Below are positions 29,605-33,666 of a DNA stretch of 33,666 nt, piece by piece. Each line of letters opens with the position of its first letter. Position 1 is the stretch's first letter. A program made the position numbers and the translations under genes. Below the pieces are notes generated by a model. That model had not been told where the DNA came from and ran no database searches. It saw only the letters and a program-made list of their open reading frames with translations. The stretch is from an uncultured Amphritea sp. (GTDB lineage: Bacteria > Pseudomonadota > Gammaproteobacteria > Pseudomonadales > Balneatricaceae), in contig NZ_CAKZLP010000007.1 of assembly GCF_937127095.1 (NCBI RefSeq), positions 1 to 33,666 on the forward strand, read 5' to 3'.

Positions 29605-30192
29605 ATGGTAACCCGCACTAGTCAGTCCCATCCCTTGCAGATCGCCGAAGTCCGGGCGGCACCTTCCCAGGGCCGGATCGGCATCACCTTCTGTCCGGGC
29701 AAGCACGACCCGTTTGCGATCACCGGCGCCTGGGCGCGGGATCTCGATACCGATCTTGATCTGATTGCCGAGTGGGGCGCAACGCTGGTGGTCACCCTGG
29801 TGGAAGACTTTGAGCTTAAAGAACTTAAGGTGCCCAATCTCGGGCAGCAAACTCAGCGCCGGGGGATCGGCTGGCTGCACCTGCCCATTGCGGATTACTC
29901 TGTTCCGACAGAAGCGTTTGAGCAGCAGTGGGCCACCGAGGGGCGAGAGATCCGCAACAGGTTGCGCAAGGGTGAAGCTATACTGGTGCACTGTAAGGGC
30001 GGCCTTGGCCGCGCCGGGATGATCGCTGCACGGCTGCTGGCAGAGCTGGGTATGCCGCCTAAAGAGGCGATTAAAACGGTACGTCGTGCCCGTAAAGGTG
30101 CTATCGAAACCCCGTCACAGCTGACCCTGGTGCGACAAACCCAGGCTATCGATGACGAAGAGCAGCGCTGCGTCTGTGAATCCGTTGATTGA
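29605..30192 (+). CDS. Dual-specificity/tyrosine protein phosphatase-like protein (CDKN3-like)
   Basis: The 195-residue protein carries the cysteine phosphatase signature HCKGGLGRAG (Cys130, Arg136, a CX5R loop) and an upstream general-acid Asp97 in LPIADYSVPT. The layout resembles the CDKN3 (KAP)-type dual-specificity phosphatase branch found in some bacteria. Catalytic residues are intact, so it should remove phosphate from a protein or small molecule; the substrate is unknown. GGGGAG is eight bases before the ATG. The 3' end overlaps the next gene, a kinase-like protein, by 41 bases in a different frame, which suggests coupled translation and a shared pathway. Confidence 0.82.
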   Translation: MVTRTSQSHPLQIAEVRAAPSQGRIGITFCPGKHDPFAITGAWARDLDTDLDLIAEWGATLVVTLVEDFELKELKVPNLGQQTQRRGIGWLHLPIADYSVPTEAFEQQWATEGREIRNRLRKGEAILVHCKGGLGRAGMIAARLLAELGMPPKEAIKTVRRARKGAIETPSQLTLVRQTQAIDDEEQRCVCESVD

Positions 30193-30847
30193 TACCAACA
30201 CCCTGCAACGGGTAGGCGGTCAGATCGGCAGCAACCCGGCCGGGGTTTTTCAGGACCGCAATGGCCAGCGCTACTATGTGAAATCGCTGGAATCGCCGAT
30301 GCATGCCCGCAATGAATTGATCGCAGCAAGGCTCTATCAACTGGCTGGCGCCCCAACCCTGACCTATCTCAACAGTGTCGACCCTTGTCAGATCGTCACC
30401 GAATGGTTAACCCTCGACAAAAAAGTTATTGCGCACTTTAACGAGAGCGAACGCAAACAGGCGCAGCAATGGTTCGGCGTACACGCCTGGAGCGCTAACT
30501 GGGATGCCGCCGGGTTTGATGGCGATAATCAGGGCGTGGTCGATGGTAAAGTGATAACCCTGGATGTCGGTGGGGCACTGGCCTTTCGTGCCCACGGCGA
30601 CCCCAAAGGCAAAGCGTTCGGGACTGCCGTGGAAGAGCTGAATGCATTGCGAACAGATGCAGATAATCTCCACGCCCTGAAGCTGTTCGCCGATATGACT
30701 GACGACGAGATTAAACAGGCGATCAGAGTGGTCACGCAGATCCCGGACGAACAGATCCGCCGGGTTATCCTCAACAGCGGCGGCAGTCAGAAACTGGTTG
30801 ATAAAATGATCGCCCGTAAAGCATATATGCGGGGTTGGCTGGGGTAG
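30152..30847 (+). CDS. Kinase-like protein (HipA/PI-kinase-like fold suspected), partner of the phosphatase
   Basis: The 231-residue protein has features of a compact kinase: a glycine-containing loop GGQIGSNPAGVFQD (residues 22-35), a candidate ATP-binding lysine (YYVK, Lys44), a helix ARNELIAARLYQLAG, then a catalytic-looking HAWSANWDAAGFDGDNQG (Asn115, Asp118, Asp125, Asn126) and a DxG-like LDVGGAL (Asp138). The order recalls HipA and lipid-kinase-like enzymes, but I cannot name the family with certainty and the C-terminal third (TDDEIKQAIRVVTQIPDEQI) is unassigned. It overlaps the phosphatase gene by 41 bases. The ATG at 30152 has only a weak AGG upstream; a GTG at 30176 is the alternative start. 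Function beyond probable phosphotransfer is inference. Confidence 0.6.
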   Translation: MTKSSAASVNPLIDTNTLQRVGGQIGSNPAGVFQDRNGQRYYVKSLESPMHARNELIAARLYQLAGAPTLTYLNSVDPCQIVTEWLTLDKKVIAHFNESERKQAQQWFGVHAWSANWDAAGFDGDNQGVVDGKVITLDVGGALAFRAHGDPKGKAFGTAVEELNALRTDADNLHALKLFADMTDDEIKQAIRVVTQIPDEQIRRVILNSGGSQKLVDKMIARKAYMRGWLG

Positions 30848-30994
30848 GTGTTACGATCTCTTAAACGCCGATCCCTTCCAACTCTATACTCAACATCCAG
30901 GCATTTCGCATTTAATCAGAGTAGTATTTAACGCTAATGAGGTAACGCAGAGGTTTGCAAAAGCCTCATAGAAACTACAGCATCGAGGGTAAGA
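30848..30994. other. Intergenic region before the DUF3800 gene
   Basis: No gene is seen in these 147 bases. A small inverted repeat (GAGG TTTGCAAAAG CCTC, near 30951-30967) and a GAGGG ribosome binding site for the next gene are present. Confidence 0.4.
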
Positions 30995-31566
30995 GTGTTG
31001 AACAAGGAAGAGCAGCAGTTACCGTTATTTGAGTTCGATAAAGCTAATATAGACGTTCATGCAACGAATTATAAAGTCGAGCAAGAATCCCCTTTTAGTA
31101 AGTACATTGTCTACGTGGATGAAAGTGGGGATCACAGTCTTCAAAGTATTGATCCGAACTACCCTATTTTTGTTTTAGCGTTCTGTGTTTTTCATAAACG
31201 GCACTACAGTGAAGCCATTGTCTCTGCACTTGAAAAATTCAAGTTTAATCACTTTGGGCATGACCAGGTCGTATTGCACGAGAATGAAATTCGTAAGGAA
31301 AAGGGGGTATTCAACATTTTCCGGAGTAAGGAGGAAAAGTACGATTTTCTCAACCAACTAACGGAGATTATCGAGTATAGCAATTTTATTTTGATCAGTT
31401 GCTGAAAAAGCCGAATGAGATTGATTCGAATCCGTATCACACTGCTTTAGGGTTCTGTATGGAAACTTTGTATGAGTTTCTGCAAGAGAAGGGGCAGCAT
31501 GAGAAAAAAACACATATCGTGGTCGAGTGTCGGGGTAATAAAGAAGACAAAGAGTTAATCTATTAA
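30995..31566 (+). pseudogene. Frameshifted and truncated DUF3800 protein gene
   Basis: The first part (GTG at 30995 to TGA at 31403-31405, 136 codons) begins a DUF3800 protein with the diagnostic YIVYVDESGDHSL and FVLAFCVF segments, an RNase H-like fold family often carried near mobile or defence genes. Reading then has to shift by one base: LKKPNEIDSNPYHTALGF, METLYEFLQEKG and HIVVECRGNKEDKEL continue the same family in another frame, with the expected residues between ISC and LKK missing. After KEDKEL the family match stops abruptly at about 31557 and the sequence turns extremely AT-rich. Base 31566 is only where the second frame meets a stop in foreign sequence. A GAGGG ribosome binding site supports the start. 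The gene is thus broken twice: internally and at the junction. Confidence 0.8.
31552..31562. other. Junction between bacterial and eukaryote-like DNA
   Basis: Left of this point the sequence encodes a bacterial DUF3800 protein at moderate GC. Right of it GC drops to roughly one fifth, bacterial signals vanish and a reading frame with reassigned stop codons begins. No transposon end, tRNA or target duplication is visible. The exact point may be blurred by a few shared bases around GAGTTA. A chimeric join is the simplest explanation. Confidence 0.8.
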
Positions 31567-32316
31567 TAATGTAGTAAAGGAATTGTTAAACAAATAAAGT
31601 TTTAAAGATTTATAAGATTATTCTAATCCAAATAAAGCAGTAAAGTTTTTAATCAAATCCAAATCAATAAACCAATAAGATTAATAGTTAGAAGAATAGT
31701 TTTTAGAATAGAAAAATTTATAAGAAAAAGTCAAATTATTATCCAAATAATAAACATTATAAAATCTAGTTTAAAAGAGAAAATCAAAAAAATCCTTTTA
31801 TTAAGAAACTGATGATGGAAATGTATAATGAGTAATATCAAAGGTATAACCATAAGAAGTAAGAAAAAAAAGTAAATATTATGTAAATTAGAATTATTCT
31901 TATGAATTAAAAATACCAAAAAAAGTAATAAAAATTGACTATTTTAACATAGATCCTAAAATGATACCAAATTAATGAGTTTAAGTAATTAAAGCACCAT
32001 AATTACAAAAACAATCCAATATGTAAATTGATCAATATAAACAATAAAAATAAAAGATTTTCTAATAGATATTTAAAAATAAATAAAATATTCTTAACAA
32101 AATAATTGATATATCTGAAAAGACCAAAAAATGATTAAAAGCTAAAAAATCATAAAATTTATCATAACTTGAAAATGTATCCTTTAATGAATAGAATTTA
32201 AAATAAAAAAGTTATCTAATATAAGCTAAAGAATTCCTAAAGAATAAATACTTTTAATTAATTTAAGATTTTTTATTAAATTTTTATTTAAAATTTTATA
32301 ATGAAAATCTCAAAAA
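31556..32316 (+). CDS. Ciliate-like gene with all stop codons in frame, exon 1 (5' end missing)
   Basis: In the frame starting at 31556 or 31562 the sequence reads as protein only if UAA and UAG are sense codons. Taken as Gln, they give strings such as ELLNKQSFKDLQDYSNPNK, INQQDQQLEEQFLEQKNLQ, YYVNQNYSYELKIPKKVIK and QLENVSFNEQNLKQKSYLIQ. About 34 of 254 codons are UAA or UAG. Three UGA codons (31829, 31976, 32132) also lie in this frame, each between convincing coding stretches, e.g. SEKTKK-UGA-LKAKKSQNL; Trp is the likely meaning, though Cys cannot be excluded because no UGU or UGC is present. The first UGA could alternatively lie in a 21-base GT-AG intron (31823-31843). Composition is Lys/Asn/Gln/Ile-rich with coiled-coil character; no known domain was recognised. 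The N-terminus is lost at the junction. Confidence 0.72.
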
Positions 32317-32359
32317 GTTAAAAACCGAAATTTTAATAAAATAACTTTTTCTATATCAG
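32317..32359 (+). other. Candidate 43-base spliceosomal intron
   Basis: The segment begins GTTAAAAACC and ends CTTTTTCTATATCAG, with a pyrimidine-rich stretch before the AG. Removing it joins the coding frame on the left (ending NENLK) to a different frame on the right (NQQPSLFEQTKIINQSIKKL) and so explains an otherwise unexplained frame change. Splicing is inferred from frame continuity only. Confidence 0.55.
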
Positions 32360-33470
32360 TTAATAACCATCCTTATTTGAATAGACAAAGATTATTAATC
32401 AAAGTATTAAAAAACTAAAAGAAATCAATAATGATCTTAATAGTAACAGCTCTTTTAACAAATTAGTTTCTTTTAATTAATATAGTTTTCCTAAAACATT
32501 TGGTGATTAAGGTAATTACGATTATGAATCTTTATAGACAGAAATATAAAATCTATAACAAAATATACAACTGGAAAACCAATAGAATAATAACTTAAAT
32601 AATCAAGTAAATTAGTTATAAAAAACAAATATTTTAAAAAGTAATTTTATATAAGAAAATAAGTATTTATTTGATAAGTAACAAAATCATATAAAATTAA
32701 ATTCAAAAGATAATTCTCAACTTGAACCTAATCAGAATGATTAATCCATTATCTATGCATTAAAAGAGAAAATTTAAGACCTTAAGCTACAGCTTAACAT
32801 AATCTAAACAGATAATAAAGAATTAAAAAAGACACCCATTTATTCCTAATACACAGAAACCACATAAGAAATTCAAGATATTTAAAAAGAACTTTCTCAT
32901 TATAAAGAGAATCTAAAGGATAACAATCTTCTTTTTAAGAACTTTTTTATTTTTTAAGATGATACAATTTTTGATAGAAAAAAGACTTAAGGAAACTTTA
33001 AAATAAAAAGATGAGCCAAAACAAGTAAAAAAATCAATTTTAAACAAAGTGGTCAATACCAAAATAAGAATTAACTAAAAGTAGATTTTACTTTTAAGCA
33101 TATATTAATAACACATATGAAAAGTATCAATAAGAATAAACTAAAAGAATTAATGTATACATAATCTTAAAAAAATACTTAAGAACAATCCGAGAATCAC
33201 CTAAAGCATATTTTAAAGGAATAAGAAAAGTATTATTATTAATAGAAAGAATATCTTGGATATTTAAAGAACTCTTTTAAGATTCTACAATAAAAGAACA
33301 AATTTACATAAATATTTGATCAACAAAAAAAACTCATTTAAGAAAATGAGAACAAAAAAGCAGAAATAGAATATCTTAAACAAAAGATAGAACAAACAAG
33401 GACAGTTATAGAAGATAAATAAAAAGTTAAAAATCAACTTTGGTAACAATTTAATGAGTTACAAAACTAA
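32360..33470 (+). CDS. Ciliate-like gene with all stop codons in frame, exon 2 (coiled-coil region to 3' end)
   Basis: About 369 codons continue the same protein. With UAA/UAG as Gln they give strong heptad-like coiled coils: SLQTEIQNLQQNIQLENQQ, YALKEKIQDLKLQLNIIQTD, TTQEIQDIQKELSHYKENLK and, near the end, KKAEIEYLKQKIEQTRTVIE followed by KNQLWQQFNELQNQ. Some 33 UAA/UAG codons are in frame. A fourth UGA (33012-33014) falls between NFKIKR and AKTSKKINFKQ; no GT occurs in the preceding 250 bases or so, so it cannot be hidden in a GT-AG intron. Trp (UGG) appears once. The likely end is the UAA at 33468, the first of four UAA within six codons, after which the sequence is low-complexity. Possible role: cytoskeletal or centriolar coiled-coil protein, but no family was recognised. 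Confidence 0.75.
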
Positions 33471-33666
33471 TACTAATAAATATAAAGAATATATTGTTTA
33501 TAAATTTTAATATATTTTTATATATAATTAAACCATTAAATTTATTTTAAGAATTTTATTATCTAATTTGATTAGGTTATTGTTATAGCATTTTGCTTTG
33601 TGGTATATTGTTTAAATTACACCAGTTCTTAATGCTAAATGAAAAAGGTGACTTTATTTACCTTGG
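33471..33666. other. AT-rich sequence after the ciliate-like gene
   Basis: The first half is almost pure A/T (for example TTTTAATATATTTTTATATA) and looks like an untranslated or intergenic stretch. The last 80 bases are less extreme (GGTGACTTTATTTACCTTGG at the very end) and could begin another gene on either strand, but no frame is persuasive. No ciliate telomere repeat (CCCCAA or CCCTAA type) is present. Confidence 0.45.

What the first reader, a model, noticed from the sequence alone, without database searches (positions are those of the whole stretch)
31556..33470. A protein gene that uses UAA, UAG and UGA all as sense codons
Seen directly: a continuous coding-like reading of about 623 codons, joined across one candidate intron, contains more than 60 UAA/UAG and four UGA codons, while keeping clear coiled-coil protein character on both sides of each. 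At 33012 the UGA cannot be in a GT-AG intron because no GT lies in the preceding stretch. Known: UAR=Gln with UGA=stop occurs in Tetrahymena and Paramecium; UAR=Gln with UGA=Trp and context-dependent stopping occurs in Condylostoma and karyorelictid ciliates, with similar changes in the dinoflagellate Amoebophrya and UAR=Glu in Blastocrithidia. Inference: the DNA comes from a ciliate with all three stops reassigned. Such genomes are few, so this could be a new lineage.
Basis: partly seen in the sequence, partly recalled or inferred. Interest (0 to 1): 0.95.

Follow-up and report, generated by a model that had tools for sequence, protein, structure and literature searches.

The report
Ciliate-like gene fragment in bacterial contig
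The last 2 kb of this bacterial contig is very AT-rich DNA, likely from a ciliate, whose gene-like reading runs through 68 UAA/UAG codons; that UGA is also read as an amino acid is suggested but not shown, and the join to bacterial DNA is likely an assembly mistake.

Summary
The window is one whole 33,666-base contig of a 5.1-Mb bacterial assembly. Bacterial sequence stops at about 31,554, inside a DUF3800 gene; the remaining 2.1 kb (19% GC) is foreign, likely ciliate DNA in a chimeric contig.

Three-base periodicity is strong (0 of 500 shuffles reach it in either half), so UAA/UAG are very likely sense.

UGA is undecided. UGA 33012 lies in a 195-nt stretch without periodicity (rank 10 of 562). 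The other three keep the frame. Gene models with UGA as sense score better in nearly all settings (9-23 bits for the first half with well-smoothed codon statistics from the other half), but tie with weakly smoothed ones, and all costs are my own. I put UGA-as-sense at about 0.45. No homologue turned up in the searches I ran, so UAR=Gln (versus Glu) and UGA=Trp could not be tested at conserved sites. The proposed code is already known (Condylostoma, karyorelicts, Plagiopyla frontata).

The parts
30995..31554 (+). Bacterial DUF3800-type gene, cut short by the junction; also frameshifted near 31403 (19 gap positions against L008)
   Evidence: DNA match to L008 and L009 up to 31553-31554 and to L011 up to 31402; in all three relatives the protein goes on with ELEFRR and more, while the window breaks off after NKEDKEL. 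Pfam DUF3800 only weak on the second fragment, E 0.15, and not on the first.
31555..31558 (.). Junction between bacterial and foreign AT-rich DNA (exact base uncertain)
   Evidence: Homology to L008 and L009 ends at 31553-31554; mean GC falls from 0.545 at 30001-31000 to 0.183 at 32001-33000
31559..32316 (+). First coding-like block of the foreign gene (reading frame 2 mod 3), UAA/UAG as sense
   Evidence: 3-periodicity 4.41, 0 of 500 shuffles
31823..31843 (+). Optional 21-nt GT-AG stretch that would remove UGA 31829 without changing the frame
31829..31831 (+). In-frame UGA no. 1
31976..31978 (+). In-frame UGA no. 2; right flank clearly in frame, left flank undecided
32132..32134 (+). In-frame UGA no. 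3; both flanks best in frame by codons (left only weakly, and not by composition alone); nearest upstream GT at 32023; the best single case for a sense UGA
32317..32359 (+). Candidate GT-AG intron (43 nt), or alternatively a one-base frameshift near 32357
   Evidence: frame change; chosen by the gene-model scoring
32360..32975 (+). Second coding-like block (frame 0 mod 3), no UGA in frame
   Evidence: periodicity 4.36 for 32361-32975, 0 of 500 shuffles
32976..33170 (+). 195-nt stretch without coding periodicity, holds UGA 33012 (33012-33014)
   Evidence: 404 of 500 shuffles reach the observed periodicity; 33012 ranks 10 of 562
33171..33476 (+). Third coding-like block, same frame 0 mod 3
   Evidence: periodicity 3.35, 0 of 500 shuffles
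33474..33479 (+). Tandem UAA UAA where coding signal and GC drop: a possible end of the gene if UAA can also stop
33496..33551 (+). Rival ending: 56-nt GT-AG stretch (7% GC) that would lead to a UGA at 33569
   Evidence: one of 16 of 44 GT-AG pairs tested that give a first UGA before the contig end

Best explanation
A 2.1-kb AT-rich stretch with a strong three-base coding rhythm and 68 in-frame UAA/UAG codons follows bacterial DNA inside a DUF3800 gene, likely through misassembly, and it likely comes from a ciliate nuclear gene that reads UAA and UAG as glutamine and perhaps UGA as tryptophan. The protein would be long, K/N/Q-rich and coiled-coil-like. Inferred mechanism: tRNAs with UUA and CUA anticodons decode UAR, a tryptophan tRNA decodes UGA at 31976, 32132 and perhaps 31829, and termination happens near the mRNA end, perhaps at the tandem UAA of 33474-33479. 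UGA 33012 is not counted as coding. The UGA step is the least certain part.
For: Junction: homology to L008 and L009 ends at 31553-31554 in mid-gene while their proteins go on, GC falls sharply, and the contig ends 2.1 kb later. The rest of the assembly that I saw looks bacterial: in 140 loci fetched (2,445,722 bases, overlaps included, and one 1,197-base contig that reads all N), no other 500-base window is below 0.27 GC. No histone, no AAA_6, no C4A2 telomere repeat in the whole assembly. Coding with UAR as sense. UGA as sense: frame kept around 31829, 31976 and 32132 (margins 1.4, 7.8, 13.0 bits). First half alone, codon statistics from the second half with stronger smoothing: UGA-sense better by 8.7-23.4 bits in 12 of 12 settings; with first-half codons in training, by 4.3-28.3 bits. 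Whole tail: 93-114 bits better than GT-AG introns alone, 18-41 bits better when indels are allowed to both. Coding signal ends at a tandem UAA.
Against: With weakly smoothed codon statistics from the second half the two readings tie (-1.4 to +0.8 bits); in that setting much of the first half is put into introns in several of the fits, and the first block is barely told from non-coding (+0.8 or -10.1 bits). All costs are my own choice. 33012 is in aperiodic sequence. No UGA lies in frame in the 307 codons of 32361-32975 and 33171-33476, against 3 in the first half. UGA frequency, 4 of 625 (0.64%), is above the 0.042% and 0.120% reported for Condylostoma and Parduczia (PMC4967479 passage). A 43-nt intron fits neither heterotrichs nor Loxodes (PMC11441545 passages). 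A 56-nt GT-AG pair would give a UGA stop at 33569. No homologue was found, so ciliate origin, Gln and Trp are all inferred; neighbour statistics do not separate Gln from Glu.
Confidence: 0.45

Rival explanations
1. Same chimera and same ciliate-type UAR=Gln gene, but UGA is still the stop codon: the UGAs at 31829, 31976 and 32132 lie in unrecognised GT-AG introns, 33012 lies in a non-coding or mis-sequenced stretch, and the gene may end at UGA 33569 after another intron.
For: Commonest ciliate code. Candidate introns 31823-31843, 31925-31979 and 32023-32141 (14% GC for the last) remove the three UGAs. The tie with weakly smoothed independent statistics. Aperiodic stretch at 33012. Candidate intron 33496-33551 then UGA 33569.
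Against: Scores 9-23 bits worse in the first half with better-smoothed statistics, 4-28 bits worse with first-half training, 93-114 bits worse over the whole tail with introns alone. No GT between 32680 and 33011, so a plain GT-AG intron cannot remove 33012 alone. No in-frame UGA after 33012 in the simple reading.
Confidence: 0.32
2. The ciliate gene is decayed or mis-sequenced: UGAs and frame changes come from nonsense mutations or indel errors in a low-depth contig end.
For: Indel models place changes near 32122, 32357, 32984 and 33025-33036. The adjoining DUF3800 gene also carries a frameshift.
Against: Bacterial genes in the same contig mostly give long open frames.
Confidence: 0.16
3. The AT-rich gene really sits in the bacterial chromosome, through transfer from a ciliate.
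For: The contig is continuous as assembled.
Against: Junction in mid-gene; none of the 56 other genomes and none of the 115 other family genomes holds the tail (5 of the 115 give chance-like pieces of 31-78 bases; only a few candidates per genome were scored); no second copy in the assembly.
Confidence: 0.03

Closest known systems
Ciliate nuclear code, NCBI table 6 (Tetrahymena, Paramecium, Oxytricha: UAR=Gln, UGA stop; UGA stop recalled)
   Same: AT-rich coding DNA, dense in-frame UAA/UAG (68 of 625 codons), an intron of ordinary size (43 nt here; median 57 in one oligohymenophorean, PMC10553269 passage)
   Different: Four in-frame UGAs remain unless extra introns or errors are assumed; no in-frame UGA at the apparent end
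Condylostoma magnum code (table 28, number recalled) and karyorelict code (table 27)
   Same: UAR and UGA both read through; possible UAA termination near the 3' end (Condylostoma only)
   Different: UGA five to fifteen times more frequent than reported for Parduczia and Condylostoma; candidate intron of 43 nt, not mostly 15-25 nt; coding GC here about 13-22% against 33.5% in Loxodes
Plagiopyla frontata (UAR=Gln; UGA predicted Trp, also stop)
   Different: There UGA=Trp rests on conserved Trp positions in 3 of 240 proteins; no such evidence exists here
Blastocrithidia (UAR=Glu, UGA=Trp)
   Same: All three stops as sense; Glu for UAR is not excluded by my tests
   Different: ORF GC 38.7-46.4% there (PMC12153298 passages) against about 13-22% here; UAA 2.06-2.28% of codons there against 9.1% here

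Membership tests
Ciliate UAR-sense code (any) | UAA and UAG occur in frame in coding sequence | tested here: met
   57 UAA and 11 UAG in 625 codons with strong periodicity
Ciliate UAR-sense code (any) | UAR aligns with conserved Gln (or Glu, Tyr) in homologues | tested here: inconclusive
   No homologue in three protein searches; Pfam and PDB gave only weak coiled-coil-type matches; neighbour test not decisive
Table 6 (UGA stop) | No UGA inside the coding sequence, UGA at its end | tested here: inconclusive
   Four in-frame UGAs in the simplest reading; removable by introns or errors at a cost in most settings; possible terminal UGA 33569 after a 56-nt GT-AG pair
Tables 27/28 (all three sense) | UGA inside the coding sequence read as Trp | tested here: inconclusive
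   Frame kept across 3 of 4 UGAs, not at 33012; models favour sense except with weakly smoothed independent training; Trp itself untested
Table 27 (karyorelict) | UGA is the only stop, and introns are very short | tested here: not met
   No in-frame UGA after 33012 in the simple reading; candidate intron is 43 nt. Both rest on the candidate gene model.
Any of these | Suppressor tRNAs (UUA, CUA, UCA or 4-bp-stem Trp tRNA) and eRF1 changes | not testable with these tools
   No tRNA in the window; no other ciliate contig seen in the parts of the assembly I fetched

The most novel reading that the evidence does not exclude
The tail comes from an extremely AT-rich ciliate, with ordinary-sized introns, that uses UGA as a regular Trp codon (about 0.5% of codons) together with UAR=Gln and stops at UAA near the mRNA end. 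It would be a no-dedicated-stop code outside heterotrichs and karyorelicts, with UGA used far more than in Condylostoma.
Probability: 0.33. Interest if true: 0.6.

Novelty: new member of a known kind. Interest (0 to 1): 0.36.

Why it matters
If UGA is really sense here, this is another case of a nuclear code without a dedicated stop, in DNA much richer in A+T than Loxodes or Blastocrithidia. In any case it is a warning: eukaryotic DNA with a variant code can be glued to a bacterial contig and pass into a reference assembly, where standard gene callers see nothing.

Tried and rejected
Tried without result: Rfam and tRNA scans of the window (none). PDB, Pfam and three large protein searches with UAR read as Gln or Glu and UGA as Trp (only a weak coiled-coil match at E 0.35 in PDB, and Pfam DivIC at E 0.007, below its cut-off; the PDB search used the Gln reading only). 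A scan for relatives of the last 58 residues gave one 52% match in a cyanobacterial MAG, judged a chance coiled-coil match, and none in viral contigs. Tail DNA in 56 other relatives: none; in 115 other family genomes: five short chance-like pieces. Plasmid and E. coli searches did not name the host.

Rejected: standard-code reading of either strand; Euplotes-type code (UAR must be sense here); non-coding AT-rich DNA (periodicity). The first gene-model run allowed one-base introns and was replaced. The neighbour statistic leaning to Glu was not upheld by a permutation test.

Full report
What the window is. The window is contig C7 of an assembly of 5,107,559 bases in 91 contigs (99.39% complete, 4.35% contamination), and the contig ends where the window ends. 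Up to 31 kb it is ordinary bacterial DNA of 43-59% GC by 1-kb window: ABC transporters, cytochrome bd oxidase subunit I, GGDEF/EAL proteins, a TonB receptor, a PAS histidine kinase, an MFS transporter and a DSP-type phosphatase (10 proteins scanned, 9 with a match). The tail 31559-33666 has 19.0% GC.

The junction. A DUF3800-type gene starts at 30995. Its DNA matches L008 and L009 up to window 31553 and 31554, and L011 (a second copy, on contig C75 of the same assembly) up to 31402. In all three the protein continues with ELEFRR and many more residues, while in the window it breaks off after NKEDKEL. The window copy also has a frameshift near 31403. A bacterial gene cut in its middle, a sudden change in composition, and a contig end 2.1 kb later are what a chimeric contig end looks like. 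I could not see reads, so this is inference.

Is the tail coding? Yes, by statistics internal to the sequence. Three-base periodicity is far above 500 dinucleotide shuffles in 31559-32316 (4.41, shuffle maximum 2.39) and in 32361-33476 (5.49, maximum 2.02); 0 of 500 reach it in either. G is concentrated at codon position 1 (0.17 against 0.04 and 0.06 in the first block; 0.15 against 0.05 and 0.09 in the second), which I take to indicate the plus strand. All six frames are full of standard stops; the longest stop-free run is 70 aa. Hence UAA and UAG must be sense if the tail is a gene. The 625-codon reading holds 57 UAA, 11 UAG, 4 UGA, 25 CAA, 2 CAG, 34 GAA, 5 GAG, 1 UGG and no UGU or UGC.

Which amino acid is UAR? 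Glutamine by precedent: UAR=Gln is the commonest ciliate variant (PMC10553269 passages). No homologue was found. A neighbour statistic leaned to Glu, but a permutation test on neighbours did not separate UAR from CAR (1292 of 5000) or from GAR (1568 of 5000), nor CAR from GAR (1233 of 5000). Gln versus Glu is therefore open on sequence alone.

Is UGA sense? For: around 31829, 31976 and 32132 the claimed frame is the best of three when the local codons are left out of training (margins 1.4, 7.8 and 13.0 bits; ranks 135, 266 and 388 of 562). Against: 33012 has a margin of -9.6 bits, rank 10 of 562, in a 195-nt stretch without periodicity (0.27; 404 of 500 shuffles reach it). I set the bounds of that stretch after seeing the frame profile. 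A cruder composition test finds no coding signal in any frame at 32081-32137, just left of 32132, and 0.0 bits at 31927-31990. The confident parts of the second half have no UGA in 307 codons.

Gene models. Over the whole tail, UGA as sense beats UGA as stop with GT-AG introns only by 93-114 bits (four settings); part of this comes from 33012, before which the nearest GT is at 32678. If both may use indels, the advantage is 18-41 bits. For 31559-32700 alone, results depend on training. With first-half codons included, UGA-sense leads by 4.3-28.3 bits. With second-half codons only and weak smoothing, the two tie (-1.4 to +0.8 bits), but there much of the first half is thrown into introns, by the UGA-stop model always and by the UGA-sense model in several settings. 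With stronger smoothing, which fits the UGA-sense reading better, UGA-sense leads by 8.7-23.4 bits in 12 of 12 settings. Costs for introns, indels and UGA are my own choices, so these bits are not odds.

The end of the gene. Coding signal and GC drop at about 33480, at a tandem UAA UAA (33474-33479). That would suit a code in which UAA also stops. A 56-nt GT-AG pair of 7% GC (33496-33551) would instead lead to a UGA at 33569. It is one of 16 of 44 GT-AG pairs tested that give a UGA before the contig end, so it is weak evidence.

Origin. GC of the coding blocks is about 13-22%, below Ichthyophthirius and Tetrahymena exons (24.1% and 27.5%) but near the Ichthyophthirius genome as a whole (15.9%) (PMC3341644 passages). 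No other ciliate-like DNA was seen: in 140 loci, 2,445,722 bases with overlaps (contig starts, contigs up to 20 kb whole, and most ends; one contig all N), no other 500-base window was below 0.27 GC. The middles of long contigs were not read. Histone, AAA_6 and C4A2-telomere searches of the whole assembly were negative; the AAA_6 control rang only weakly, in three prokaryotes. The eukaryotic rRNA search never ran (six failed calls). So the owner cannot be named.

Comparison with known codes. UAR=Gln with UGA=Trp is on record for Condylostoma magnum and Parduczia (PMC4967479 passages), Loxodes and karyorelicts (PMC11441545 passages; PMC10553269), Plagiopyla frontata (PMC10553269 passages) and Amoebophrya (PMC6394959 abstract); UAR=Glu with UGA=Trp is on record for Blastocrithidia (PMC12153298 passages). 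UGA frequency here (4 of 625, 0.64%) is above the 0.042% and 0.120% of Condylostoma and Parduczia. The 43-nt intron differs from the mostly 15-25 nt introns of heterotrichs and Loxodes, but suits oligohymenophorean-type introns (median 57 in one species). If UGA is sense, the owner is thus more like a Plagiopyla-type case than a heterotrich or karyorelict (inference).

Verdict. UAR as sense in ciliate-like DNA: very likely. Chimeric contig: very likely. UGA as sense: about even, unproven. A new member of a known kind at most.

Noticed in passing
window 30995-31554; L011 (own contig C75): The bacterial DUF3800 gene carries a frameshift near 31403 and is cut by the junction; a longer uninterrupted copy lies near the end of contig C75 of the same assembly.
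   Followed up: partly
window 29605-30847: A DSP/PTP phosphatase gene (Pfam PTP-SAK; weaker to Tc-R-P, described as polymorphic toxin system phosphatase) overlaps a 231-aa gene without any Pfam match, just upstream of the DUF3800 gene.
   Followed up: no
window 33560-33666: The last 100 bases have higher GC (0.21-0.30 in 90-base windows) and no clear coding rhythm in my model; they could be a second ciliate gene or another join.
   Followed up: no
window 32976-33170: 195 nt without periodicity between two blocks in the same frame, with no GT upstream for over 300 nt: an intron with unusual borders, a germline-type insert, or paired indels.
   Followed up: partly
own assembly G000: No bacterial 16S rRNA was found in a 99%-complete assembly; one 1,197-base contig reads all N.
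   Followed up: no
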